This document shows positions 94-58,500 of a stretch of DNA of 64,000 bases, piece after piece. The number at the start of each line of letters is the position of its first letter. Positions within the stretch are counted from its first letter, which is position 1. The notes beneath the pieces are model-generated. The model ran no database searches and had not been told where the DNA came from. It worked only from the letters and a program-made list of their open reading frames with translations. Made by a program: the position numbers and the translations under genes. Origin of the DNA: Carex sylvatica (Eukaryota; Streptophyta; Magnoliopsida; Poales; Cyperaceae); assembly GCA_964058845.1 (NCBI GenBank), contig CAXKVR010000048.1, positions 496,001 to 560,000 on the forward strand, in the 5' to 3' direction.

Positions 94-1986
94 GGAGATA
101 TTGATGTAGATGCTTCTTTAATTTTGATGCTTCACGAGACATCCATAAAAGCTGACAACTTGGAAAAGATGGTTGAAGAATTTTTTGGGGCCCACAAGAA
201 AATGGCTCACCTAGTAGTAATGAGTTTAAGACTTTTTCTCCTTATATTGCTTTTAAAATAATAATAATTTCTTACAATAAATACATTTTTGCTGTAATTG
301 TATATTAGTGCTTAATTTATGACTTAAAATTGCAGAACAAGCTAGCAAAGAATTCACAGCAAAAAGAGCAAGAAATTAGAGATCTCAAGGAAAATTTAGA
401 GAGGGAAAAGCAAGAAAAGGATCAATTAAGACGAGAAATTGAAGAGAACGAGCATAAGAAAATAGAAGAAATTGAACAAATCACGAAAGAGATTGACCTC
501 CTCAGAATCCAAAGAGATGAAGATTTCAACCAGATTCAAGTGGCACATGAGAGGAGGCTTGCCTTGGAAGAACAAGTTTCTGATTTGGAATTCCTTGTTA
601 ATGAGCTATGCATGCAAAAAGAAAAGATGCATTATGGCTCCTCTACAGCATTGAACTCAGAGTTTTCCTTGCAAGAACTGCAGCAAGCAACTGAGAATTT
701 TAGTGAATCACTGAAGATTGGAGAAGGTGCATTTGGACCCGTTTACAAAGGTTCTCTTCGTCGAACCACAGTAGCAATTAAGTTGTTGCGTTCCCAGAGT
801 ATACAGGGATTGTCACAATTCCAACAAGAGGTAGTTAATTTTATGCATGAAAATATAATTAAGGTTCAGCGAGAACCAGAGTATGGCTGAATTAAGCTAT
901 CCACTTTAAGGGATGCAATTCTAGATTAGCATCTACAGTGGTGATCTTTGATATACCCTAATTTTTTTACACCTTATATTTATAATTATATATAACATTG
1001 TTAAATTTTTGTTTAAATATTTTTAAGATATTTTCCTTCCTTAATTACAGATTACCATTCTCACTAAAGTGAGGCACCAAAATCTAGTAAACCTCATAGG
1101 AGCTTGCTCAGAAGTATCAGCACTTGTATATGAGTACTTATCTAATGGCAGCCTTGAGGATCGTTTGACCTGTGCCAACAACACCCCACCTCTGACATGG
1201 CATGTGCGGACCCGTATCATCGGTGAGATCTGCCTCGCTCTCATTTTCCTCCACTCAAACAAGCCCCAACTAGTAGTCCATGGAGATCTCAAGCCTGGAA
1301 ACATTCTCCTTGACACCAATTTGGTGAGTAAACTCAGTGACTTTGGCATTTCTCGCCTCCTGAAACAAACAGACACCAACTCAACTGCTTTCCACAAAAC
1401 AAGTCGTCCAGCAGGAACATTATCATACAATGACCCTGAGTATTATTCAACTGGGATTCTGACACCAAAATCAGACATCTACTCCTTGGGCATCATTATC
1501 CTTCGTCTCTTAACAGGAAAGCCTCCAATGAACATAGCAAGACAAGTGGAAGATGCAATGAGTAACAATATGTTGTCGTCAGTGATTGATGAGTCAGCTG
1601 GGGCATGGCCCTTTGAGCAAGCTAAGGAGCTAGCAAAGATAGCACTAAGATGTGCCGAGATATCTAGAAGCCAACGGCCTGATCTTGTTAATGAGGTGTG
1701 GGTAGTGGTTGAACCCTTGATGAAGGCTGCTTGTACTTACGTGGAACTGGCGGAAGAGAGCATACCATCACACTTCATCTGTCCAATATATCAGGAAGTG
1801 ATGAAGGATCCTTGTATTGCAGCAGATGGGTTCACATATGATGCAGAGGCAATAAAACAGTGGCTCAGTACAGGTCATAACACATCTCCAATGACCAACT
1901 TGTCACTTCCACATCACGATCTGATTCCAAATCGCGTGCTTCGTTCTGCTATTCATGAATGGCTTCAGAGCCACCCACAATCTTAA
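94..1986 (+). CDS. U-box domain-containing protein kinase, PUB33-like (3' part)
   Basis: This is the C-terminal part of a plant U-box E3 ligase fused to a receptor-like cytoplasmic kinase; its ubiquitin-ligase and kinase roles are known from the family. I read exons 94-213 (or 216), 336-830 and 1051-1986, all GT-AG and in phase 0. The order is a Glu/Lys-rich coiled coil (about 336-640), then a kinase starting at FSLQELQQATENFSES with glycine loop IGEGAFGPVYKG, VAIK lysine, HGDLKPGNILLD catalytic loop (HGD instead of HRD, as I recall is usual in this clade) and SDFG. The U-box follows: HFICPIYQEVMKDPCIAADG to the C-terminus. Intron 831-1050 splits the kinase between FQQE and ITILTKVRHQNL; reading through it gives a false stop. 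The N-terminal exons, expected to hold a USP-like domain, lie left of the window. Confidence 0.9.
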
Positions 1987-8704: not shown

Positions 8705-10252
8705 ATGCAGGTGAGAAAGGGGCAGTCTGGAGGCCGTGGTTGTGGCTGGGGTGGTAGGAGAGGTGAAAGAGGAGACTACCGGGCAGCAGGTAATGAGAAG
8801 AGTGTGGTAGATAAGACATCTACCCCCTCTTCACTCAGGGGTAACTTTGCTTGTTTTACTCAATCAAACACAGGTGTTTGTGATACACTTGCTCTTGCCT
8901 CCATACTCACTACTAGATCACCAGATTGGATAGTTGACTCTGGTGCAACTCGCCATGTGACTGGTGCTGCTAGGGAGTTTTCTTCCTATACTCACCTAGC
9001 AGTCTCAGATAGCGTTCAGATAGCCGATGGTACGGCCCAGCCCGTGGTTGGTAAGGACACTGTGAGATGTACTGATTCAGTGACTCTGACCAATGTGTTG
9101 CATGCTCATTCCTTTCCCGTAAACCTGGTGTCCATTAGTGCTATTATTCGTGAGCAGAAATACATCGTAACCTTTGATATTCCGAAGATGGTCTTTCAGG
9201 AGAAGGGGACGGGTCGGATACTTGGGACTGGCACATGGCGTGATAGGTTGTGGTACATGGATAGAAAAAGAATGGACACAGCGCTGACATCTGTGGTCGA
9301 TAGAGTGAGGACAGGAGGATCTGAGGTGAGTGTGGAGGATGAGTTGCTCCTGATTCATCGGCGGATGGGGCACTCTTCCTTCGGCCTACTGGAACGTTTG
9401 TATCCATCAAAGTATGAGAAAGCTGACAAACAAAAACTTGTGTGTGACGGATGTAAGTTTGGGAAGCATACAAGGAGTTCGTATGTAAGCTCAGGAAATA
9501 GGAGTTCTTATGCCTTTGATCTGGTATACTCAGATGTATGGGGGCCTTGCTCAACAACTTCGATGAATGGGTATAGATTTTTTGTGACTTTCATCGATTG
9601 TTATTCTCGTGTCACATGGTTGTACTTGATGAAGAACAAGAGTGATGTACTTGCTTACTTCAAGAATTTTCATAAGGCGGTTCAAACTCAGTTTGGTGCT
9701 ATGGTGAAGGCATTGAGATCTAATAATGGGACTGAATATACAAACAAGGCATTCGAGGAGTATTTGTCAGTTCATGGGATACATCATCAGACCACATGCC
9801 CTTACACACCAGCACAAAATAGAGTGGCAGAGAGGAAGAATAGACACTTGTTGGAGGTAGCCCGGTGCATGATGATCTCCATGAATGTTCTGAAATATTT
9901 GTGGGGAAAAGCAATCCAGACAGCCACACAATTGATCAACAGAATGCCATCTAGAGTGTTGGACTGGCAGACTCCGTGTGTGATGTTGAAAGGAGATAAT
10001 GGGGGTGTTCTTCCTCCTAAGGTATTTGGCTGTGTGTGTTTTGTGAAAGACAACAGACAAACAGTGGGAAAGTTGGATCCCAGAGCGGTGAAATGCATCT
10101 TTGTGGGTTACTCTGGTACTCAAAAGGGTTATGTGTGCTGGAGTCCGGTAGAGAGAAGATTGTTTATGAATATGGATGTTACATTTCGCGAGCTCCAACC
10201 TTACTACTCTTCAGAGACTACATCACCCTTTGGAGACTCGCTCGATACATGA
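8705..10252 (+). pseudogene. Copia pol: protease and integrase
   Basis: A 515-residue open frame. In order: a Gly/Arg-rich start, the aspartic protease motif VDSGATRHVTG (about 77-87), the zinc-binding pre-integrase HHCC (H218, H223, C247, C250), and the integrase core with D277 in YSDVWGP and E376 in NRVAERKNRHLLE. The middle catalytic Asp of the usual RSDNGTEY is Asn here (RSNNGTEY, residue 340), so integrase should be dead even though the frame is long and open. Downstream pol continues in other frames. Confidence 0.85.
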
Positions 10253-33092: not shown

Positions 33093-33101
33093 TAATTTTT
33101 C
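33093..33101. other. Left 9-bp target-site duplication of the MULE
   Basis: TAATTTTTC, repeated exactly at 42723-42731. Confidence 0.9.
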
Positions 33102-33209
33102 CCGACATTTTTAAAAATACCCAAAAAAAAAAACAAATTGTTAAAAATAACAGGGTTCCAGCCAAATTTTTAAAAATGCCCTGACCGCCTAAAAATGGGG
33201 CGGTCCGGG
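33102..33209 (+). repeat. Left TIR of the MULE
   Basis: Starts CCGACATTTTTAAAAATA and ends GGGGCGGTCCGGG. It contains the dyad GACCGCC-N9-GGCGGTC at 33183-33205. Confidence 0.93.
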
Positions 33210-33240
33210 TTTTTTTTTTTTTTTTTTTTCCCTGGTTTTT

Positions 33241-33697
33241 CCTTATAAGGAGAATGTGCCTTCAGCCAGAGGAAAGAGAGAAGGGGAAAGAGAAAGAGAG
33301 AGAAAGAGAGGGAGAGAGAAAGAGAAAGAGAGAGAAAGAGAGAAGGAGAAGGAGCTACTACAGGTACGTACTGTTTATTTTTTAAATATTTTATTTACTG
33401 TTCACGTACTGTTAATGTACGTATTTACTGTTCACGTACTGTTCACTTACGTATGTACTGTTCACGTACTGTTCATGTACGTATTTACTGTTCACTTACG
33501 TATTTAATGTTGACAAACTATTCACTTACGTATTTGTTGTTCGCATACTATTCATTTATGTATGTACTGTTGACCCAAATTGATAAGTACATATTAACTG
33601 TTCACATACCATTAATTTAGGACTGTTTAATACTGATGGCAGCTGTATACAATTGGAACTGGTAAACTGACAAAATATTTACCATTCATTAATGTAG
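33241..33697 (+). promoter_or_regulatory. Leader exon and repeat-bearing leader intron of the transposase
   Basis: Just inside the left TIR is CCTTATAAGG (33241-33250), then a GAGA-rich leader exon ending CTACTACAG at 33363. A donor GTACGT starts intron 33364-33697, which ends AATGTAG. The intron is packed with variants of TACTGTTCACGTACTGTTCA and TACGTATTTACTGTTC. The ATG follows 11 nt after the acceptor. Confidence 0.65.
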
Positions 33698-33707
33698 TTT
33701 ATTGGCC

Positions 33708-36700
33708 ATGTCTGTTGGAATTTTCGTACATTTTGGAGGAAAGTTCACAACTGACCAGTATGGTGTACGTTACTCCAAACCTCCAGTAAATACGCGTTGG
33801 GTTGATGAAAATTTCTCATTTGAGGAGTTGCAAACGCTTATTTACGATTTGAGCGGCTACAATAGGAACCGCTATGAATTACAAATAATGGCCCGAGTGC
33901 TCCAAGGAGGAAGGTATCTCAGAATTGCACTGGGAGATGACGTGGCATTGAGAGGCCTGATCAACAGGACTGTGAGGTCCGGTGATAGTGGATTCGAAGT
34001 TTTTGCGTGCAGGATTCACAGAGGATCAGGGTCTGGAAGTTCAGGCCAAAATTATATTGCAGAAAATTATCAACAAAATGCAGAACCACACACTCCTATA
34101 TTCGTACCCGAACCAACGCCAGAACCAGAAATATATAGTAATTCACATCAACCTCCACATTTGATCCCACCCGGACTACAATCTCCACCTTTTATCCCAC
34201 CTATATATGTGTCGGGAGGTCCTTCATTCTTACCTGGGCCTGAACCAAATCCTCACCCCAGACCGCCACCAGTACAGGAGGATTCACACGAGTCAGAATT
34301 TGAATTTATGAACGAAGTACCGGAGGAGAATCTACAAACTGGGGATGAATTGGGAGAAGAACACTGGGACGATAATGATGAGGGAGATGATACCGATGAA
34401 GGAGAATACACACAGCCTACTGTGAGGCAGAATAGAAATATGTCATTAAGTGGCCGTTCTGAGACTCACCCGTTCGTAAACTTCAATGACACATCTGCTT
34501 TTCGAGAAGCAGATGTTTCTTACTACGGTCATCGGGTTGAATACAAGAGTGAGCTCGCACAAGGTCAGTACTTCGAAAATAAAAAACAGCTGACGAAAAA
34601 GATCAGAGAGCACCATGTTGACAAGAATCAGGAGATATATACTCACAAAAGTGACAAATCCCGGTTGGAAATTAGATGCAACACTCAGAATTGTCATTTT
34701 ATCCTGAAGGCAAGAGCAACAAATTATGAAGATACATGGGTAATAACTGAGCAAGACACGCCTCACACATGCACGTCAGAGTACACCAGGACTGACCATG
34801 CACAACTCACGGCATCAATCATCGCAGATATCATCGAGGATAGCATTAAGAAAGACCCCTGTATGAGCATTCGGAGTGTGGAAAACTGCGTGAGGGTTAG
34901 ATTTCGAACTATAACCCCAAAGTACAACCGACTTTGGAGAGGTCGTGATATTGCAGTATCCCGACAATTCGGGAGTTGGGAGGAATCGTACAATTTTATG
35001 AAACTATTGCTTATCGGGATATGTGACAAGAATCCCGGCTCGAGGCACCAATTTCTGACTAGTCCGAGCATCGATAAAAATACAGGACTGGTCAAGCAAG
35101 ATGTGCAGCAATTTAGGGCCGTCGCATGGGCTTATGGACCATGCATCACCGCAGTTGATTACTTGAGACCGGTGATCAGTATAGATGCAGCCTTCCTCTC
35201 TGGACGGTATGAGGGACGGCTTTTGATGGCCTGCGGCTATGATGCCGAGAATCAATTGTTGCCTCTAGCATTTGGAATTGTACAGAAGGAGAATGAAGAG
35301 AATTGGGGTTTTTTCTTACAGTGGTTTAGAATTCATGTGCTTGGTGTTAATAGATTCGTATGCGTTATATCAGACCAACACAAGGCGATCAAAGCTTCTT
35401 TGAAACCCGAATACGGATGGGATGGAAATAATTTTGTGCACAGGTTTTGTATGCAGCATGTTGCTGATAACCTGGTGCAGGCGTGCGGAAAGGACAAATG
35501 GTACGGAACCAGGTTCAAACAAGGAGCCAGGAAGAAGAAGCCAAGAAGGCTGAAAGAGATGTTCGAAGAATTTGCCATGGTATGTCTAATATTGTCTAAG
35601 TTATATCATTTTTGTTTCCTTGACATGCATATTTCATCTAATTTTACTTTGTTCTATTGCAGCAAAATCCGAAGTGTAATGTTTTTTTAAAGAGAGTGGG
35701 CAAAGTACGTCCTAATGATGTCATGGAGCCGTCAAATTATGAGAAAATCTTTCAAACCTGTGATGGAGGATATCGATTTGGTATCATGACAACAAATGGC
35801 TCTGAGTCCCTGAACGCTGTCTTTAAGGAGGCCCGAATGTTGCCCGTAGCTGCACTTGTTGAGGAGACATTCTACAAGTGCAACAGGTGGTTTGTTCAGC
35901 GGCGGCAGGCAGCAATGGAGCACAGCACTGCTTGTAAGCCTTTTTCCAAACGGGTACAAGATAAGCTTGCCAAACGGTGGGAGAAAGCTGTGGGTATGGA
36001 TGTCATCTCATACTCGCACGGCGAAGGTAAGTACGAAGTCACGGGCCCAGATGAATATGTCCCAGTAGTCCAAACACAGGATGGAACTATGTCCATTATA
36101 CATAGAAAGTTCAAGTATATTGCGACATTCGGAGCTGATAGAGCAGTGGAATGTACATGCAGAGGTATCCAACTAACTGGAATTATGTGCGCTCATGTGT
36201 TAGCGGTTTGTCGCCATAACAGCTGGTCCCCCGATCAATTTGTTGCCCACTGGTACAGAATGGAGTACCTTCTGAGTACTTGGAATGCCTTGTTTGTTCC
36301 CTACGGTAATCCTGAAGAATGGCCTACGACCACTACCCCAAAATACGAGCCGAACAAAGATTGGATACGGTATGGTAGGAGAAAACACATCCGTCAACCA
36401 ATGACCATGGATGAAATGCAAGGTAGGCAAATAGGGCACCGTCCTCGCCGTTCCATTACCGACAGGCAGATGCGAGGTATGTAATATTGAACAATGATTA
36501 TATTTTATTACATTTTTCAATAACTTACTATATCATTTATTGGGTCTGCAGATTCTCGTAACGCAGCAAATGCAGCTGAAAACGATCGAGTTATGGCAGA
36601 GGCAAGTGGATCGCAAGGGTCGAGGCGCAGCACAGCCAGAAGCCGTACCTTCCGTGAAAATGCTACTATGATGTTTAGGGAGGCAATGGGAGAAGTACTG

Positions 36701-36997
36701 ACAGGAGAAGAGGTGGTTGGGATGCAGGGGCATTCAGGTACTACCCAGCGGAGAAGGAGCACATCTCAAGCTGGAAGGAGGAGCACATCTCACGCGGGAC
36801 CATCTGGTACAGCACACGAGGAAGGAGAAGCTTTGCAACCACCTAGGAGGAGCACATCTCAACTAGGAGGGACGAGCACATATGGTGCAGGGCCATCTGG
36901 TACAGCAAACCAGCAAGAAGAAGCAGTACAACCAGCTAGAAGAAGCACATCATCATGGGGATCTCGTGTGCTGAGGGGATTGAATTTTAGACGATGA
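33708..36997 (+). CDS. MuDR-family transposase
   Basis: Three coding exons, 33708-35579, 35663-36476 and 36552-36997, join in phase to 1043 residues. Domain order: an N-terminal domain from MSVGIFVHFGGKF, a Pro-rich then acidic linker, a WRKY-GCM1-type zinc finger (C324, C329, H353, C355), and the MULE DDE catalytic core. The core has D493 in SIDAAFLSG, D556 in VISDQHKAI and E672 in NGSESLNAVF. A SWIM zinc finger follows (C788, C790, C800, H802; CxCx9CxH). The tail repeats RRSTSQ/H/S units. It should bind the TIRs and catalyse cut-and-paste in the nucleus. All catalytic residues are present and there is no frameshift. Stopping at 36484 without the second splice loses the repeat tail, so isoforms are possible. 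It was probably formerly annotated as a transposase only. Confidence 0.92.
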
Positions 36998-37180
36998 CTT
37001 AATATAATTTGTATAGTTGTATTGTATCGTTTGATTACATGTTGTATTATTTTATGTGAATGTGTTGTATTATTTTATGTAAATGGATTGTATTAGTTTA
37101 TGTTATGATTTATTTATGTTTTAATATTTTATGATATGACTTATTCACGTTATAGTATGTTTATTTTGTTGTTGAACAGG
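36998..37180. other. 3' region of the transposase gene
   Basis: AT-rich, with TGTTGTATTATTTTATGT repeated twice. It ends in a good acceptor, GTTGTTGAACAG, just before the next ATG, so a spliced join to upstream exons is possible. Confidence 0.45.
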
Positions 37181-37435
37181 ATGAACGATAGCAACCGAGG
37201 TATCGAGCAAGGAGAATGTCACTGTAAATTTTGTTTTCTTAGAAAAAGATTTGGTCCGCAACCTATTGTTCATCCTCCCCTTTCAGACGATGACTTTGTT
37301 GAAAATTCATACGGATCTGGTAAGGCGAGCACATCATCGGGAGTAACTACTCTTAAGCCAGCTGATAAGAAGCCGGCTGCTAAGAAGCCGGCTGATAAGA
37401 AGCCAGCTGCTAAGAAACCGGCTTATAAGAAATAG
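37181..37435 (+). CDS. Small Cys- and Lys-rich protein of the MULE
   Basis: An 84-residue frame from the ATG at 37181 (an upstream ATG at 37136 would add 15 residues). The first part contains ECHCKFCFLRKRFGP, a short Cys cluster, and an acidic patch LSDDDFVEN. The end is a basic repeat of KPADKKPAAKKPADKK type, coded by alternating GCTGATAAGAAGCC and GCTGCTAAGAAGCC units. I do not recognise a family. It could be a third MULE protein or an alternative 3' exon of the transposase, because an acceptor lies directly upstream. The basic tail suggests nucleic-acid or chromatin contact, which is inference. Confidence 0.45.
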   Translation: MNDSNRGIEQGECHCKFCFLRKRFGPQPIVHPPLSDDDFVENSYGSGKASTSSGVTTLKPADKKPAAKKPADKKPAAKKPAYKK

Positions 37436-37912
37436 GGTTTTAAATGCCTTTGTTTAAATTTTACATTGTAAGATATTTTTATTCCGACCCCAACTTTGCA
37501 CACTCGTTATCGGAGCAAACTATCTCCAAAAATTATGAAAATTGAGCGACATACATTGTTGACATTTCCAAACAGGACTGTAAAGTTTCATACGAAATCT
37601 CCGAACGGATCGTGAGATATAAGAGCTCAAAAATAGCCCGAACTGATGACGTTTTCATTCCGACCCCAACTTTGCACCCTCATTTTTTTTGTTTAGTGTT
37701 CTTTTGTTGTTCTTTTGTTTTTGATTTAGTGGTTCTATTAGTATGTTTTTTGTTCTTAATTATGTAGTGTTTCTCTTATTATTTTTTCTGTTGTATAAAT
37801 ACTACCATAAAACATAGCTAAACTCAGAACAAAAATCATAATAAGCTATCAGCGTACATAATACATAATAAAACATAAAACACTACAAAGAAAACAATAA
37901 AAAAACTCTCTA
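37436..37912. other. Spacer between convergent MULE genes, with 21-bp direct repeats
   Basis: ATTCCGACCCCAACTTTGCA plus C occurs at 37481-37501 and 37657-37677. No ORF of note. It should hold the 3' ends of the two convergent transcription units. Confidence 0.6.
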
Positions 37913-40849
37913 TCAACGATACCGCGAATCGGAATATCGGTCAGCTGGTCTGCCTCTGTTCTCTCTGGTGAAAACTCGATGCCAGTTATTCCACTGTACT
38001 TCTCCTTCCTGCGCCACACGAGCTGGTGTGATCTCGACCTCGGGCTCAGGCTCTCTGCTCATCGTGAGTGCTGTACCCCATGGATCCTCGGCGGCGTGTG
38101 TAGCTGGCAGAGGGGTATGAAACAAGGATAAGTCAGGATGAGTCCCGCTACCAGAGGCCTCCCAATCGTGAGCCCTCGCTGGATACGGCTGATGCGGTGC
38201 AGGAGAAGCGGCTGTATCCCACTGATCACCTGGAGCTAGCTCTGCAAGGCTGAACTCCATGCCCTGAGACTCATGCATAGACTGAATCTCCGGAGATCGA
38301 GCCTGGTGCTCAGGCTGTGTCGGAATGTAGGCAAGACCCTGCAAGGATACAAATAATTCAATAAATTTTAACTAACGTACTTTACTGAAGGAGAAAATTT
38401 TAACTAACTTGACATAAAATAAAGAAGACCGAACCTGAGGAAGCTCCGGGGATCTAGTCTGGTGCTCAGGCTGTGTCGGCATGTAGGCAGGACCCTGCAA
38501 GGAAACAAATAATTCAATAAATTTTAACTAACTTACTTTACTGAATGAGAAAATGTTAACTAACTTGACATAAAATAAATAATACCGAACCTGGGGAAGA
38601 CACGGACGTCCATACTGGTCAAAATAGGCGTGCCAACTAGACATGCCCAGAACCCAACGGTGGTAGTCCCACTCTGGCTGGTCTGCGGGCTCTGGTGGCA
38701 TATCAGCAGTCATAACAGGTGGCGCGTCGGGCTCATCCCTATGTACTCTGCGCCAATCGATGTCCTCTCCGGCGTCTCTGAGCATCGTGACTAGCTTGGC
38801 CTCGTGGCCGTGGCCCTCAATACAAGGCGCAAAGTAGTTCAACATTGTGTGTCCAAAAGCCCTGAAGCCACGCTTTCCAAGACAAACGATTGAATGTGCT
38901 CCACCTTTAACCGCTAGTAGCAACTAAAAAAATTAAAATAAGAAACATTAGAAAAAAAAGGTTAAAAAGATGGTCAAAATGAGTTGTTTTAGGTGCATTA
39001 CTTACATCACGAGCCCCTTTTCTGCCAGTGGGAGTATAACCATCATCTTCGAAGATCTTGGAGCGGAGATAATTGCCGTAATCTCCCTCAAGATACACTG
39101 ATGCCATGCCGACCCACAGGTACCAAGCCTGGTATCTCAGTAGGGGAGACCCCTGCAGCTGCGTCTCATAATCCTCCGACATATGCCACAAGTTCTCCCT
39201 CATGGTCCCTGCTCTGTCGTAGTGCTCCAGGAAAGCCGTACTCCAATCTCTATCGGCGTGATTACCGTGGTACGTCCTGTAATTAATATGTTACATGCAA
39301 ATTAGTGTTTACAACAACTAATATTAAATACAAAATTCAAGAAAAACATAACTTGTACGTACCCGTGTAGCCTCGTGATAATAGATCTCGGGATGTCTGG
39401 ATCTGCGGGGATGAGTGGAGGAAGTCCAAACTGACGGAGCACCCGGTCTGGATAGTGATGCTCCACTATCCAGAAGCAAATCAGCGGACCCCTGTAGAGC
39501 CACATCTCCTCATCATCTGATATAATCTGTGGCAGGCTCCCCTCACAGTATGACTCAGCATACGGAGTCCAGCTCACCTGCGTGTCACCCAGACTCTGCA
39601 ACTGACCACGGACCAACCTGATGCCTGCTGGCTTTCCGTGAGGCGTGTCCACGTAGCTGTGATTCCCGTACCATTTCTTGCCAAATGCCGGGTGATATGC
39701 ATCATCGGGCTCTCCCGAATGTAGTGACTCATTCTGCACGGGTACCGCCACTGGTATGCGCGACCACGACCAATGCTGCAGTAGAAGTGTCGGCCCGTAC
39801 ATCTTCTTACTTTTAGGCTGCAATTTGAAGAATATTAGACGTCGGAACAAGTTAATTTTTAAAAATAAGACAACAATAACATACTGACCTTGCAAGCATG
39901 GCACAGGTTCGAGTAAAGATGTGCCAGGACGGCTCCACCCCAGTTGTACTTTCTTGATGACCCAAGGTCTCTCAACAGCTCCAGATACATAATCGGAATG
40001 GCATCACTGCTCGAATCAGGAAACATGACAGAACCAAATAGGTCCATCACGAAAGCCCGTGTGTATCTGAAATGTCAAAATTAGGGACCAACCCATTTTT
40101 TGCAATGAAATAAAATACAAAATAAATATATATATATATATATAATGGTTTATAAAAGTACCTCTCAATGTCATGCTGTGTGGATCGCCAATGCAAACCT
40201 CGATCGGCAAACAGAGCTCGCAGCGCCGTCTTCTTCAGATGAAATCTCGATCTCCCACCATTATCACGTACATCTGGCTCTGCTCCCAACAGCTCTGTGA
40301 GGCTGGCATTAATCATGTTCTCATCAGTGGGGTCAGATATGCCACCGATGGGCACGCCCTGGATAGGCAAACCCCAAAGGACACTCACGTCCTGGAGAGT
40401 CACTGTCATCTCTCCGAACGGCAAATGGAATGTGTGTGTCTCGGGGCGCCATCGCTCCACTAGCCCCTGAATGAGGGACGCATTAATGGCCTTGCTCTCC
40501 GTCTCCAATATATCGACCAAATGGTACAACCCCAGATTGTGTAGATACGGGTCCATCAGAGAGTAGTACTGCATGCCATAAACCCGACACTTGCTTTCTA
40601 GAGACTCCTGACTCTGCGTTGAAAAAAAAACAAACAACATAAAAATCTGAAAATATGAGAACTCTAAAAAAATTTAACGTAAAAAAAGAAAAAAATAAAG
40701 TAATCACGTACCTCTCGGGATGCTAGTGAGACTCGATGCTCACTGTGAGGTATCCATAATAATGGACTGAAATGCTCCGTGCTATCCACGGGAATGGGCT
40801 CATCAATAGGGTCGGGTGGTGGTGGTCTCCTAGGACGTCCCCTAGCCAT
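37913..40849 (-). CDS. Plant mobile domain (PMD) protein, MAIN/PP7-long-form-like
   Basis: Eight exons join in phase to 770 residues: 40849-40712, 40613-40162, 40066-39889, 39817-39363, 39276-39006, 38923-38591, 38494-38435 and 38338-37913. The PMD is recognised from LVERWRPETHTFHLPFGEMT and LQDVSVLWGLPIQGVPIGG (about residues 97-136) through RKYNWGGAVLAHLYSNLC. The tail is low-complexity with repeats of QPEHQxRSPE. PMD proteins are plant-specific; Arabidopsis MAIN and MAIL1 act in the nucleus in gene expression and transposon silencing, and many PMD genes sit in transposons. Here the gene lies wholly inside MULE TIRs, reads inward from the right TIR and converges on the transposase. An anti-silencing or host-interaction role is a guess. 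The coding region looks intact. Confidence 0.87.
38344..38600 (-). repeat. Tandemly duplicated exon-intron unit in the PMD gene
   Basis: Exon 7 and its upstream intron nearly duplicate the start of exon 8 and its upstream intron. Coding GPAYMPTQPEHQTRSPE pairs with GLAYIPTQPEHQARSPE. The introns pair too, from GTTCGGT through TATGTCAAGTTAGTTAA to the CCTTGCAG acceptor. The unit is about 156 bp, and both copies keep phase 0. Confidence 0.8.
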
Positions 40850-40850
40850 C

Positions 40851-42494
40851 CTACGTTTGGAAAAAAAATTAGACATGCTACATTTGACTAAAATAAGCTC
40901 ATTCCTGTTAAAATATAATAAAATAAGCTAATTCATATCAAAAAATACAAAACTACCCTAGTAAGAAAAAAAAAAGTTAAAATAATGCGTTAGAATAAAA
41001 AAAAAATTGTTATTCGCCTAAAATATGCTAAAACAAGCGGAAATACACTAAAACAATATATTTGCGGTAAAAATAGGCTAAATTACGTTAATATGAAAAA
41101 AAAAAGGTTATTCGGACAAAATATACTAAAATATGATAAAATACAATAATTACGGTCAAATATGCTAAAATACGCTAATTATGGCAAAAATTTACTAAAT
41201 ATGCTAATTTCGGTAAAAAACAGTTAAAATAATGCGTTACAATAAAAAAAAATTGTTATTCGCCTAAAATATGGTAAAACAAGCGGAAATACACTAAAAC
41301 AATATATTTGCGGTAAAAATAGGCTAAATTACGTTAATATGAAAAAAAAAGGTTATTCGGACAAAATATACTAAAATATGATAAAAGACAATAATTACGG
41401 TCAAATATGCTAAAATACGCTAATTATGGCAAAAATTTACTAAATATGCTAATTTCGGTAAAAAACAGTTAAAATTATGCGTTAGAATAAAAAAAAAATG
41501 TTATTCGCCTAAAATATGGTAAAACAAGCGGAAATACACTAAAACAATATATTTGCGGTAAAAATAGGCTAAATTACGTTACTATGAAAAAAAAAAAGGT
41601 TATTCGGATAAAATATACTAAAATATGATAAAATACAATAATTACGGTCAAATATGCTAAAATACGCTAATTATGGCAAAAATTTACTAAATATGCTAAT
41701 TTCGGTAAAAATATGTTAAAATAATGCGTTACAATAAAAAAAAAATGTTATTCGCCTAAAATATGCTAAAACAAGCGGAAATACACTAAAATAATATATT
41801 TGCGGTAAAAATAGGCTAAATTACGTTACTATGAAAAAAAAAAAGGTTATTCGGATAAAATATACTAAAATATGATAAAATACAATAATTACGGTCAAAT
41901 ATGCTAAAATACGCTAATTATGACAAAAATTTACTAAATATGCTAATTTCGGTAAAAATATGTTAAAATAATGCGTTACAATAAAAAAAAAATGTTATTC
42001 GCCTAAAATATGCTAAAACAAGCGGAAATACACTAAAACAATATATTTGCGGTAAAATAGTCTAAATTACGTTAATTACGACAAAAAATATACTACATTT
42101 CTCAAAATATGCTAATTACGGTCAAATTATGCTAAAATACGCTAATTACGGCAAAATTTCGGAATAAATAATTCAAAATAAAATTAAAACTAACTATGGT
42201 ACCATAATTATCACTAATTTCAAATATTTTTGGTACCTAATTGACGCTAATTACCACTAAATTTGTACCGTAATAAAATAATCATAATTATAAATAAATT
42301 AAAACTAACTTTGGTACCATAATTATCACTAATTTTAAATATTTTTGGTACCTACATTAATGCTAATTACCACTAAATTGGTACCGTAATTAAATAATCA
42401 CAATTATAACTAATTAGCACTAACTAACTTAATTTGACTAATCTATAATTTTTTTACACTACAAATGAAATTTCAAATATATATAGGGACTTAC
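40851..42494 (-). promoter_or_regulatory. Leader intron of the PMD gene
   Basis: Donor TTGCAA|GTAAGT (minus strand, intron from 42494) and acceptor CGTAG at 40852-40851, one base before the ATG. The leader exon is CT-rich and lies at about 42495-42600. A TATAAATA motif on the minus strand (about 42606-42613) sits beside the right TIR. The intron is 1644 bp and mostly tandem repeat. Confidence 0.6.
40978..42130. repeat. Tandem array of about 246-bp units, about 4.6 copies
   Basis: Units start near 40984, 41231, 41477, 41722 and 41970, marked by AATGCGTTASAATAAAAAAA. Each also has GCCTAAAATATGSTAAAACA, TATTTGCGGTAAAAATAG and ATTACGGTCAAATATGCTAA. Adjacent copies are very similar. The last is partial and grades into GGTACCATAATTATCACTAA repeats (about 42197-42410). 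Confidence 0.9.
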
Positions 42495-42614
42495 TTGCAA
42501 ATTGGAAGAAGAGAGAAGAAGAGAGGAGAAATTCGGGTGGGGAGGAGAGAGAGTGAGATTTTTAGAAAATGAATTGTGAGGAGAGAGAAAGTTCTGTGGA
42601 GGGTTATTTATAGG

Positions 42615-42722
42615 CCCGGACCGCCCCATTTTTAGGCGGTCAGGGCATTTTTAAAAATTTGGCTGGAACCCTGTTATTTTTAACAATTTGTTTTTTTTTT
42701 TGGATATTTTTAAAAATGTCGG
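42615..42722 (-). repeat. Right TIR of the MULE
   Basis: Reverse complement of the left TIR with one mismatch; it contains the dyad at 42619-42641. The target duplication follows at 42723-42731. Confidence 0.93.
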
Positions 42723-42731
42723 TAATTTTTC

Positions 42732-55589: not shown

Positions 55590-58500
55590 ATGGTGCTTCC
55601 CTCGCGACGGGTTAAGCCTTTGGAACAGGTGGGTCCCATCTGGTTCTTCTTCACCGTCGCGATAATATTTTTCTTGGTTCTCTTCGGTACTCTCTACTTC
55701 GACTGGGGTTCGCTTCTATGGCGGGATGGAAAGATGCGACAGATGAGGAGCGGAGTCGAACTAAAGAAGGTTTTTGGTTTTGGGAGCGGAAACTCTAGTT
55801 TGGAGTGCGATTGGTTTGATGGAGAATGGATTTGGGACGACAAGTATCCTCTTTACGATTCCAAAAATTGCCCCTTTCTCGATTCGGGATTCAGGTGCTC
55901 TGAAAATGGTCGAACCGATAGTTTGTATTCACACTGGAGATGGCAACCCAAGCACTGTGATCTTCCCAGGTCTATTTAATTTCTTTTCTTTTCCATTTAT
56001 TCTTCTCCATGACCTCTTTTAAATGTTCTTTCCTTTCCCATTTATGTAATATTTGCTTCTTTGGTGGGGGGTTTAGATTGGATTTAAGGAAAAAAAGAGA
56101 ATGATTTTGGTAAGATAAAAGGTTTGAAAGCAGCAGTAGGAAAGTTAAGACTGCTACTAGTTTCTCGTTGTGATTTTAGTTGGATTGAATGAAAGGGATG
56201 TTTTGCCATTTACCATTTTAGGATCACAAATTGTTGTATTAAATTACATTCATCAACTATTTGGAGATCGGAGAAAATTGTTTTTTTAAAAAAAATTTTA
56301 ATCAAGGCCCAAAGGGGTTCTTTAAATAACTCGGAAGGCTCAAAGACAGCATTGAATTGATTAAACTGTGTATTTGTTCTTTCTTGGAATACTCAAAAAC
56401 AAGTTATTTAATCATTTGTACATTCTATTGTTTAATCCCTCGAGCTCACCTCGTAGCGCAATTTTTTCATTTTTTTTTTGTCTGTAAAATTTGATCCTTG
56501 GGAATAGAAATTGGAGCTTCAATATTGGGTAAGTAGTGCCATGTTAGAAAATAGTAAATTGGCTCTATTCTTTAATGCCTTGTTTGATTTCTTTATTTAC
56601 ACCCATCCAACTTTTTGTTCTTTGTTCTTTGAACCCAACCCCCCCCCCCCCCCCTCCTAAAAAAAAAATACAGTCTCTGTGGATTTTAATTTGTTATGCA
56701 TTGTGCTATTTTTTTAGGGGCAAGGCAATAATTTTTTATTGGCTTATGTGCTCATCTTGCTTTTGGTTTTTGGAACTCTTGTGATTTTATATTTCGTTTC
56801 TCTTTTCCATGTATAAGTTTGTTTTATGCCTTTGTGTAAATTGCAATGTCAACCCATTCAAATTTGACACCAAAAATATCAATCCCTTTGTTTCCTAGGA
56901 GTGGAAACTCAGTGAAGTATGTCATGTTCCTGGGAAATGCTCAACAAGTGCTTTTATTAGTTGCTATTAATCAGTGAATACATTCATTTTATTATTTATA
57001 TATTTGTTTGATTTGTGGTTTATGTCTGAATTGTGGTATGCGAATGAATTGTGGATGCTCTTCTGTTGATAAAAGTTACTAATCTGTTCTATTACATTGA
57101 TTTGTGTATTAAATTATTCATTTTTGTTGGACACTATATGATTTTATTTTAGATTCAGTGCAAAAAAGATGCTAGAAAAGCTAAGGGACAAGAGACTAGT
57201 ATTTGCTGGCGACTCAATCGGCCGTAACCAGTGGGAATCTCTTCTGTGTCTACTCTCCAGTGCTGTCTCAAATAAATCCTCCATTTACGAAATTAACGGC
57301 AACCCAATAACCAAGCACATGGGATACTTGGTGTTTAAATTTAGTGAGTATAACTGTACCGTGGAGTATTACCGGGCACCATTTCTGGTTTTGCAGAGCC
57401 GGGCCCCACCTGGTGCACACAAAAAGGTTCACACCACACTCAAGCTGGATGTAATGGACTGGTTGTCTTGGCACTGGAGAGATGCTGATGTCTTAGTCTT
57501 CAATACTGGACACTGGTGGAATTATGAGAAAACTGTCAGATCGTAAGTTTCTTTCATCATAATTGTTTATTGTTATTATTAAAATAAACTCTTCAATACC
57601 ATTATTATACCTGTCCATTTAGAAAACACCAACAAGAGGAAATTATCCTAAAGATTTACAAGAGATTAGATACCCAAATTGTGCAATACAAAACCTGCAC
57701 TGTCTGGTTATACTGTTTGCCGGGATAAATATAACTGAAAAGAAAATATAAACAAAAGAAACAGAAAAGGAAAATGGAATTATTGATGGGTATGCAAGTG
57801 AGACCAGTTGTATGATCACGAGTGAAAATGACATAGTTGCCTTTTCTGTGTTTGCTTGTTCTTTTGAAGATGACATTGCCTTGAGTTAATGACAAAAGGG
57901 ACCTCAATTCGAATGGTCAGAAATTTTGGTTTCTTTAGTTGAATTGGTTTTCACGAGTTTGGCTAGTATAACATCAGTGTCATTTCAACCTATATAACAT
58001 CAATTCTAAAACCTATCAAATCAACTTCAAATAGTAAATCCAAACCGTTCAAACCGATCTACTTCATTAGTTGTGCGTTTACATGCAAAATTTACAACTT
58101 TTTGAATTTATTTAGTATTAAGATCAAACGGTCAAATATATGAGTTTTTAAGTTAATTTTAATACATTAATTTTTCAATATTTTTACCACTTGATTTGAT
58201 ACTAAAATAACTCGAAAACATAAAAAATTTGTATGCAAACGCATCACACATAATGTAAATTGGTTTGAACGGTTTGGATTTACCGTTTGAAGTCAATTTG
58301 ATAGATTTTAGAATTGGTGTTATATAGGTTGAAATGACACTGATGTTATACTAACCAAACTCGGTTTTCACAGTTGGTGTCAAGTACCTTTCTACTTCAA
58401 ACATTTAGTTTGAAGCTGACAAAAGGTCGGGTTAGTAGCCCTTTCACCTGCTACTTTCAGATAAGAAGAATTGAGAAGAAGCTAACAGATGCCCCTGTTA

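What the first reader, a model, noticed from the sequence alone, without database searches (positions are those of the whole stretch)
33102..42722. A young, apparently complete two-gene MULE carrying an intact plant mobile domain gene
The TIRs match at 107 of 108 positions, the 9-bp target duplications (TAATTTTTC) are identical, and both genes splice in silico into long frames (1043 and 770 residues) with all transposase catalytic residues. That PMD genes occur in transposons is known. Here the gene lies unambiguously within one element's TIRs, facing the transposase. Since host PMD proteins (MAIN/MAIL1) act in transposon silencing, a transposon copy might interfere with or exploit that pathway; this part is a guess.
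Basis: partly seen in the sequence, partly recalled or inferred. Interest (0 to 1): 0.88.

Follow-up and report, generated by a model that had tools for sequence, protein, structure and literature searches.

The report
Jumping gene with likely anti-silencing protein
This is a young, complete plant DNA transposon whose extra gene encodes a protein of the 'plant mobile domain' family, and that domain is predicted to have the same shape as the DNA-bound part of a known transposon protein that switches off its host's silencing, which turns an old puzzle about this family into a direct test.

Summary
The element is real: 9,621 bp, TIRs 107/108, identical 9-bp TSDs, D493-D556-E672 transposase, intact 770-aa PMD gene facing it. 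It is one of about 27 paired copies (five of them short) in a sedge-like genome. There, 106 of 150 scored MULE transposase hits, across several families, have a convergent PMD. Antisense PMD genes in MULEs are already published, so the architecture is known. A conserved third ORF (84 aa) was missed.

Best reading: the PMD protein is a VANC-like, sequence-specific DNA-binding anti-silencing factor. Fold homology is well supported; binding and anti-silencing are inferred.

The parts
33093..33101 (.). Left target-site duplication TAATTTTTC
33102..42722 (.). Complete MULE, 9,621 bp
   Evidence: other copies
33102..33209 (+). Left terminal inverted repeat
33392..33594 (+). Transposase-side tandem array (about 30-bp unit, TACTGTTCACGTACTGTTCA...), candidate regulatory or binding array
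   Evidence: family D4; 130 genome sites, backwards control 0
33708..35579 (+). Transposase exon 1 (DBD_Tnp_Mut, MULE domain; D493, D556)
35663..36476 (+). Transposase exon 2 (E672, SWIM finger)
36552..36997 (+). Transposase exon 3, ends TGA
37181..37435 (+).
37476..37684 (.). Intergenic repeat (176-bp spacing; 0 to 9 marker counts among the 26 copies examined)
37913..38338 (-). PMD gene exon 8 (stop at 37913)
38435..38494 (-). PMD gene exon 7, within a tandem duplication with the start of exon 8 (156-bp unit 38284-38439 / 38440-38595, 92%)
38591..38923 (-). PMD gene exon 6
39006..39276 (-). PMD gene exon 5
39363..39817 (-). PMD gene exon 4 (PMD domain, used for codon comparisons)
39889..40066 (-). 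PMD gene exon 3
40162..40613 (-). PMD gene exon 2 (PMD domain)
40712..40849 (-). PMD gene exon 1 (ATG at 40849)
40911..42159 (+). PMD-side tandem array, 245-247-bp unit with sub-repeats AAATATGCTAAAATACGCTAATTA; candidate binding array
42615..42722 (-). Right terminal inverted repeat
42723..42731 (.). Right target-site duplication TAATTTTTC

Best explanation
A recently active, autonomous-type TIR MULE carrying its own anti-silencing gene. The transposase is expected to act on the TIRs and to move the element and shorter relatives with the same ends. The PMD protein, transcribed toward the transposase, is a DNA-binding protein of the same fold as VANC21. It most likely binds short motifs repeated in the element's non-coding arrays (best candidate the 247-bp array upstream of its own gene; second candidate the 30-bp array upstream of the transposase) and removes or blocks silent chromatin there, keeping both promoters open. 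Shown: element anatomy, family spread, convergent pairing, purifying selection between older PMD copies, fold match of two homologues, family-specific motif arrays, movement of a derivative with most of the transposase gene deleted. Inferred: which transposase moves what, that the PMD protein binds DNA, that these arrays are its targets, and that the result is anti-silencing.
Against: Identity to VANC21 is only 7-9%, and a shared fold does not prove a shared function. The models are of homologous proteins (Elaeis, Carex), not of the window's spliced protein. DNA-contact residues were not compared. For the Carex model Foldseek alone is not significant (E 0.023). The window PMD itself shows no DUF1985 match; its own weak match is DUF7745. 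Within the young family selection is weak (omega 0.67, p 0.03; PMD of six copies with deleted or damaged transposase 11 syn/23 non), and older window-family relatives give p 0.07-0.28. Window family versus the 69-71% group has omega 0.62-0.79. The arrays could be ordinary promoter repeats. The exact array 24-mer is not in the listing, which covers contigs up to C238, for PMD-only elements C31b, C34, C42, C184 or C212, nor for the short elements C3:452k and C93:595k. No methylation, binding or RNA data were available.
Confidence: 0.6

Rival explanations
1. Decoy: the PMD protein mimics host MAIN/MAIL1 and binds PP7L, poisoning the host PMD complex and releasing silencing generally, without binding the element itself.
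For: Host MAIN/MAIL1 act with PP7L in TE silencing (PMC7156037, passages). TE-encoded PMD as counter-silencing is proposed in print (PMC5418596; PMC8616336). In the tree the window PMD falls in a Poales set (98/94) that includes grass PMD-metallophosphatase fusions (domains).
Against: Does not account for the family-specific arrays or the match to a DNA-bound VANC21. Host PMD action on a subset of TEs runs through MORC1 expression (PMC9899485, abstract and section headings only).
Confidence: 0.15
2. Transposition helper, like maize MURB: PMD assists excision or integration of the transposase complex.
For: Maize MuDR also has two genes in opposite directions, and mudrB is apparently required for integration (PMC6446971; PMC9168764). 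106 of 150 transposase hits have a convergent PMD and the two diverge together (Spearman 0.81, 102 pairs).
Against: PMD copies under purifying selection in elements without a detected transposase fit a helper less easily, and the fold match is to an anti-silencing protein. Sequence similarity to MURB was not tested here.
Confidence: 0.15
3. Passive passenger: a captured host PMD gene carried along without function.
For: MULEs often capture genes. PMD-less copies exist (C335, C181, with TSDs; four short elements). Selection within the young family is weak.
Against: PMD recurs in convergent position in divergent transposase families (26 of 35, 68 of 88, 12 of 27 hits by identity band; chance about 7%), diverges with the transposase, is constrained between older copies, and is intact in 17 of 19 assessable copies of 26.
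Confidence: 0.05
4. Transcriptional autoregulator: PMD binds the arrays and activates or represses the element's promoters with no effect on silent chromatin marks.
For: Arrays lie upstream of both genes. Host PMDs are needed for expression of DOWN-motif genes.
Against: VANC21's primary effect was described as removal of silent marks rather than transcriptional activation (PMC5735166, passage).
Confidence: 0.2

Closest known systems
MULEs of the MUDR, MUDRAVI2, MDR and MULE-Monocots groups with antisense PMD genes (Dupeyron et al. 2019, PMC6446971, table and other passages)
   Same: TIR MULE, 9-bp TSD, SWIM transposase, PMD gene often antisense
   Different: No PMD function, binding array or PMD-only elements in the passages read; the exact group of this element was not assigned here
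VANDAL21/Hiun with VANC21 (Hosaka 2017 PMC5735166; Sasaki 2023 PMC10398659, passages)
   Same: MULE accessory gene; predicted fold of the DNA-bound part of VANC21; short motifs in variable tandem arrays of non-coding DNA; duplication in the variable part of the protein
   Different: VANC carries DUF1985 and VANDAL21 also has VANB; here PMD, a small ORF3 and 108-bp TIRs. Anti-silencing not demonstrated here
PMD-C/MULE captures and host MAIN, MAIL1-3 (Ikeda 2017 PMC5418596; Nicolau 2020 PMC7156037, passages)
   Same: PMD domain; MULE association; counter-silencing already suggested
   Different: Ikeda describes PMD-transposase fusion proteins in grasses and Amborella; here separate convergent genes and a structural hint of DNA binding
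Hvu_Abermu, barley three-ORF MULE (PMC9168764, passages)
   Same: Large MULE with three ORFs, one antisense to the transposase, Ka/Ks below 1
   Different: The paper's main text does not mention PMD; relation of its ORF2 to ORF3 here was not tested
Maize MuDR (mudrA/mudrB)
   Same: Two genes in opposite directions between TIRs
   Different: The second gene here is PMD; MURB similarity not tested

Membership tests
Mutator-like element (MULE) | Long TIRs and 8-11-bp TSD | tested here: met
   107/108 TIR, 9-bp TSD; in 19 of 26 copies with both ends readable: 13 exact 9-bp, 1 with one mismatch, 5 exact 8-bp
Mutator-like element (MULE) | MULE-domain DDE transposase with DNA-binding and SWIM domains | tested here: met
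   PF10551 1.7e-16, PF03108 6.6e-7, PF04434 5.6e-5; D493 D556 E672 (which residues are catalytic is recalled)
PMD family (PF10536) | Match above Pfam cut-off | tested here: met
   228.6 bits against 34.9
VANC anti-silencing proteins | DUF1985 domain by sequence | tested here: not met
   No DUF1985 match in the window PMD at E<=10; weak matches in 12 of 52 relatives at E<=1, 4 of 46 at E<=0.05
VANC anti-silencing proteins | Fold of the DNA-bound part of VANC21 | tested here: met
VANC anti-silencing proteins | Short motifs in variable tandem arrays of the element's non-coding DNA | tested here: met
   that the protein binds them is untested
VANC anti-silencing proteins | Sequence-specific DNA binding and methylation loss | not testable with these tools
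   needs binding and methylation data
VANDAL elements | Non-TIR structure (one review's description) and transposase group | tested here: inconclusive
   This element has 108-bp TIRs. A review calls VANDALs non-TIR, but a table lists TIRs of 46-174 bp in the VANDAL group. The transposase group was not assigned
Ulp1-carrying (Kaonashi-type) MULEs | ULP1-like protease domain | tested here: not met
   No such Pfam match in the three proteins at E<=0.01
MuDR | mudrB gene | not tested
   no MURB sequence was compared

The most novel reading that the evidence does not exclude
PMD and VANC (DUF1985) are branches of one ancient family of sequence-specific DNA-binding proteins that relieve silencing. 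MULE lineages across plants carry one or the other with matching, fast-evolving motif arrays. Host MAIN/MAIL proteins are members whose silencing role is indirect, through the genes they keep on. PMD-only MULEs, mobile without a transposase of their own, keep PMD under selection as self-protection.
Probability: 0.45. Interest if true: 0.9.

Novelty: new variant of a known kind. Interest (0 to 1): 0.78.

Why it matters
PMD is described as a domain of unknown function, and how MAIN/MAIL1 work is open. A fold shared with DNA-bound VANC21 says what to test: does it bind DNA, which motif, with what effect on chromatin. It would unify two sets of MULE accessory genes and offer a second sequence-directed anti-silencing system beside VANC. 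This element supplies a matched protein and candidate target arrays, plus natural deletion derivatives as controls.

Tried and rejected
Passive passenger: disfavoured by recurrence, co-divergence and constraint. Selection tests inside the young family: too few changes to be strong. One motif enriched in all non-coding parts of the element: none found. DUF1985-type VANC genes in this genome: 3 matches, all below the Pfam cut-off. Solved PMD relatives by sequence: none at E<=0.1. Viral fold library: nothing at E<=0.001. Fusion of PMD and transposase: not in the window models, which are on opposite strands. The PMD tree used 51 rows; two Carex rows (P0001, P0002) of the 52 homologues were dropped because a motif used for trimming was absent. 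The pairing count used 150 listed rows (165 matches), 31 further rows chosen by hand (143 matches; the rest were at places already counted or second pieces), and the 150 rows. The ORF3 count used 54 of 69 matches and added 35 of the 150 rows.
Full report
Observation. The element at 33102-42722 is as described: TIRs 107 of 108, inverted repeat of 111 bp including flanking letters, exact 9-bp TSD. Splicing in silico gives a 1043-aa transposase with DBD, MULE and SWIM domains and D493, D556, E672, and a 770-aa protein with a full-strength PMD match. No RNA was available, so the splice sites rest on open frames and conservation in other copies.

Family. The host genome (64.0 Mb, 950 contigs) was searched by tool. 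A TIR-internal 28-mer finds 60 ends with 0 in the backwards control; by my count 27 paired elements, of which C181 (2.7 kb) and four others (C284, C3, C93, C463; 1.7-2.1 kb) are short, plus 6 single ends. The terminal 24-mer finds 576 ends, control 0; in the cut listing I count 15 inward-facing pairs 0.6-2.0 kb apart, so short elements share the termini. I fetched 25 copies and examined 26 with the window. PMD was intact in 17 of 19 copies with all eight exons (C116 among these has one changed splice donor); C238 and C201 are broken; 7 were incomplete. Transposase: 10 of 12 complete copies intact, 14 incomplete. ORF3: 15 of 15 complete copies intact, 3 partial, 8 absent. Of 19 copies with both ends readable, 13 have exact 9-bp TSDs, 1 has one mismatch and 5 have exact 8-bp TSDs, all at different targets. 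The nearest compared copies differ from the window at 6 of 2313 PMD bases (17 copies compared) and 15 of 3132 transposase bases (11 compared). A host U-box kinase in the window is closest to Carex rostrata (81%), then Juncus effusus (69%) among named records, so the host is probably a sedge.

Is PMD always included? No. C335 keeps all but the end of the transposase but lost most of PMD. C181 lost both. C116, C336, C107 and C56a keep an intact PMD but lost most of the transposase; C942 has an intact PMD and no transposase in the 10 kb fetched; C221 has an intact PMD and a deletion in transposase exon 1. C336, C107 and C56a share one deletion junction at three target sites, so this derivative, with PMD intact and most of the transposase gene gone, has moved. 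Beyond this family, 106 of 150 scored transposase hits have a PMD within 12 kb in convergent orientation, against 2 divergent, 2 same-strand and 40 with none. By identity to the window transposase: 26 of 35 (>=79%), 68 of 88 (60-66%), 12 of 27 (<60%). About 7% would be expected by chance, and the identities of the two genes are correlated (Spearman 0.81, 102 pairs). These searches score only the best candidates, so they are lower bounds, and I did not examine why the 40 lack a PMD hit.

PMD-only elements. I fetched exon 4 of six PMD copies 69-71% identical to the query there (C34, C330, C31b, C184, C42, C212). None has a transposase hit within 12 kb with either of two queries, each listing its best 150 matches. 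Five lie on contigs covered by the cut listing of termini: C31b, C34, C42 and C184 have termini on both sides (6.1-8.5 kb elements) and C212 on one; C330 could not be judged. C31b, C34, C330, C42 and C184 have open exon-2 frames; C212 has a stop there. A similar copy, C116:12562, does have transposase exon-2 remains beside it, so I cannot exclude diverged remains in others.

Selection. Within the young family: PMD 39 synonymous and 65 non-synonymous changes, omega 0.67, p 0.03; transposase 23 and 50, omega 0.74, p 0.14. PMD in the six copies with deleted or damaged transposase: 11 and 23, no clear constraint. Between older copies (exon 4 only, 20 fetched plus the window): F2 copies (PMD 46-49% identical to the window's) omega 0.22-0.30 at dS 0.3-0.55, 0.52 for one close pair; F4 copies (44%) 0.19 at dS 1.7; window family against the 69-71% group higher, 0.62-0.79. 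Counting tests: F2 52 syn/55 non, p 7e-7 (kappa 2.5); the six PMD copies above, in two clusters, together 15 syn/5 non, p 1e-5 (expected non-synonymous fraction 0.73; 1e-4 at 0.68); older window-family relatives 14 syn/27 non, p 0.07-0.28. So PMD is conserved over the long run, apparently also where no transposase is detected, while young copies drift. The last point rests on six short sequences.

Target candidates. [quoted passage not shown] The window element has a 245-247-bp array upstream of the PMD gene, made of sub-repeats around ATGCTAA: AYGCTAA 20 times, all on one strand, in 1.87 kb, none elsewhere in the element, 9 in 54.4 kb of flanks; WAYGCTAAWW 19 against a Markov mean of 0.6, maximum 5 of 500. 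Its 24-mer occurs 291 times in the genome (<=2 mismatches), control 0; the 100 listed sites, all exact and cut at contig C238, fall in 19 loci, 16 window-family copies and 3 other places beside PMD or transposase hits (C3, C150, C156). By a marker count, unit number is 2-13 in 24 copies; two copies cut by contig ends show none. C335 and C181 keep the array. A second array upstream of the transposase has 130 sites, control 0; of the 100 listed, two loci (C24, C513) are at no transposase or PMD hit on my lists. The PMD tail has a tandem-duplicated exon. Against: the exact 24-mer is not listed for PMD-only elements C31b, C34, C42, C184 and C212 or for the short elements at C3:452k and C93:595k.

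Mechanism. I conclude that the PMD protein most likely works like VANC: it binds its element's arrays and counters silencing there. This fits host biology: genes needing MAIN/MAIL1/PP7L share a promoter 'DOWN' motif whose direct recognition was left open (PMC7156037, passages), and host PMD proteins affect a subset of TEs through MORC1 expression (PMC9899485, abstract and headings only). I do not file it as a VANC: the window protein does not match DUF1985. Whether the element belongs to the VANDAL group was not settled.

Known and new. PMD in MULEs, often antisense, is published, as is the presence of 'PMD and/or DUF' in half of the VANDAL group (PMC6446971, passages), and so are PMD-transposase fusions and the anti-silencing speculation (PMC5418596, passages). 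A search for papers holding both 'VANC' and 'plant mobile domain' found two, neither linking them structurally in the passages read. Four papers on or reviewing VANC have no occurrence of 'PMD' or 'plant mobile' in the main text. The listings of searches show no title or abstract making the link. The library lacks most subscription journals and I saw no paper for 9lnj, so the link may be reported there.

Noticed in passing
37181-37435 (+): Conserved 84-aa ORF3 between the two genes. Homologues sit between transposase and PMD in other families, on the transposase strand in some and on the PMD strand in others; five unnamed database relatives share GECHCKFCFLRK. Could be a third gene or an alternative 3' exon.
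   Followed up: partly
G000:C31:514716-523174, C34:654198-662742, C42:114194-120269, C184:12866-19141: PMD copies between MULE termini with no transposase hit, PMD exon 4 under purifying selection. Why selection should keep a trans-acting gene in a non-autonomous element is unexplained.
   Followed up: partly
G000:C48:560204-564761 (just right of the window end): Another PMD-MULE of a divergent family: PMD (+) facing transposase (-), about 47% and 65% identical to the window's in the searched parts.
   Followed up: no
Genome-wide: 576 ends carry the element's terminal 24-mer (<=3 mismatches); 15 pairs in the cut listing are only 0.6-2.0 kb apart, suggesting a large non-autonomous set possibly moved by this transposase.
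   Followed up: no
Pfam DUF7745 (PF24924): DUF7745 weakly matches 12 of 52 PMD proteins (best E 9.8e-6), hinting that it belongs to the same superfamily as PMD and DUF1985.
   Followed up: no
G000:C158:69977-92109: A 22-kb copy with 108/108 TIRs and a TSD with one mismatch, apparently interrupted by insertions in the transposase gene; PMD intact.
   Followed up: no
8705-10249 (+): Copia-type integrase and polyprotein fragment (rve, gag_pre-integrs).
   Followed up: no
1069-1983 (+) and 55590-55976 (+): Host gene exons: U-box protein kinase (81% to Carex rostrata) and a PMR5 N-terminal domain.
   Followed up: partly
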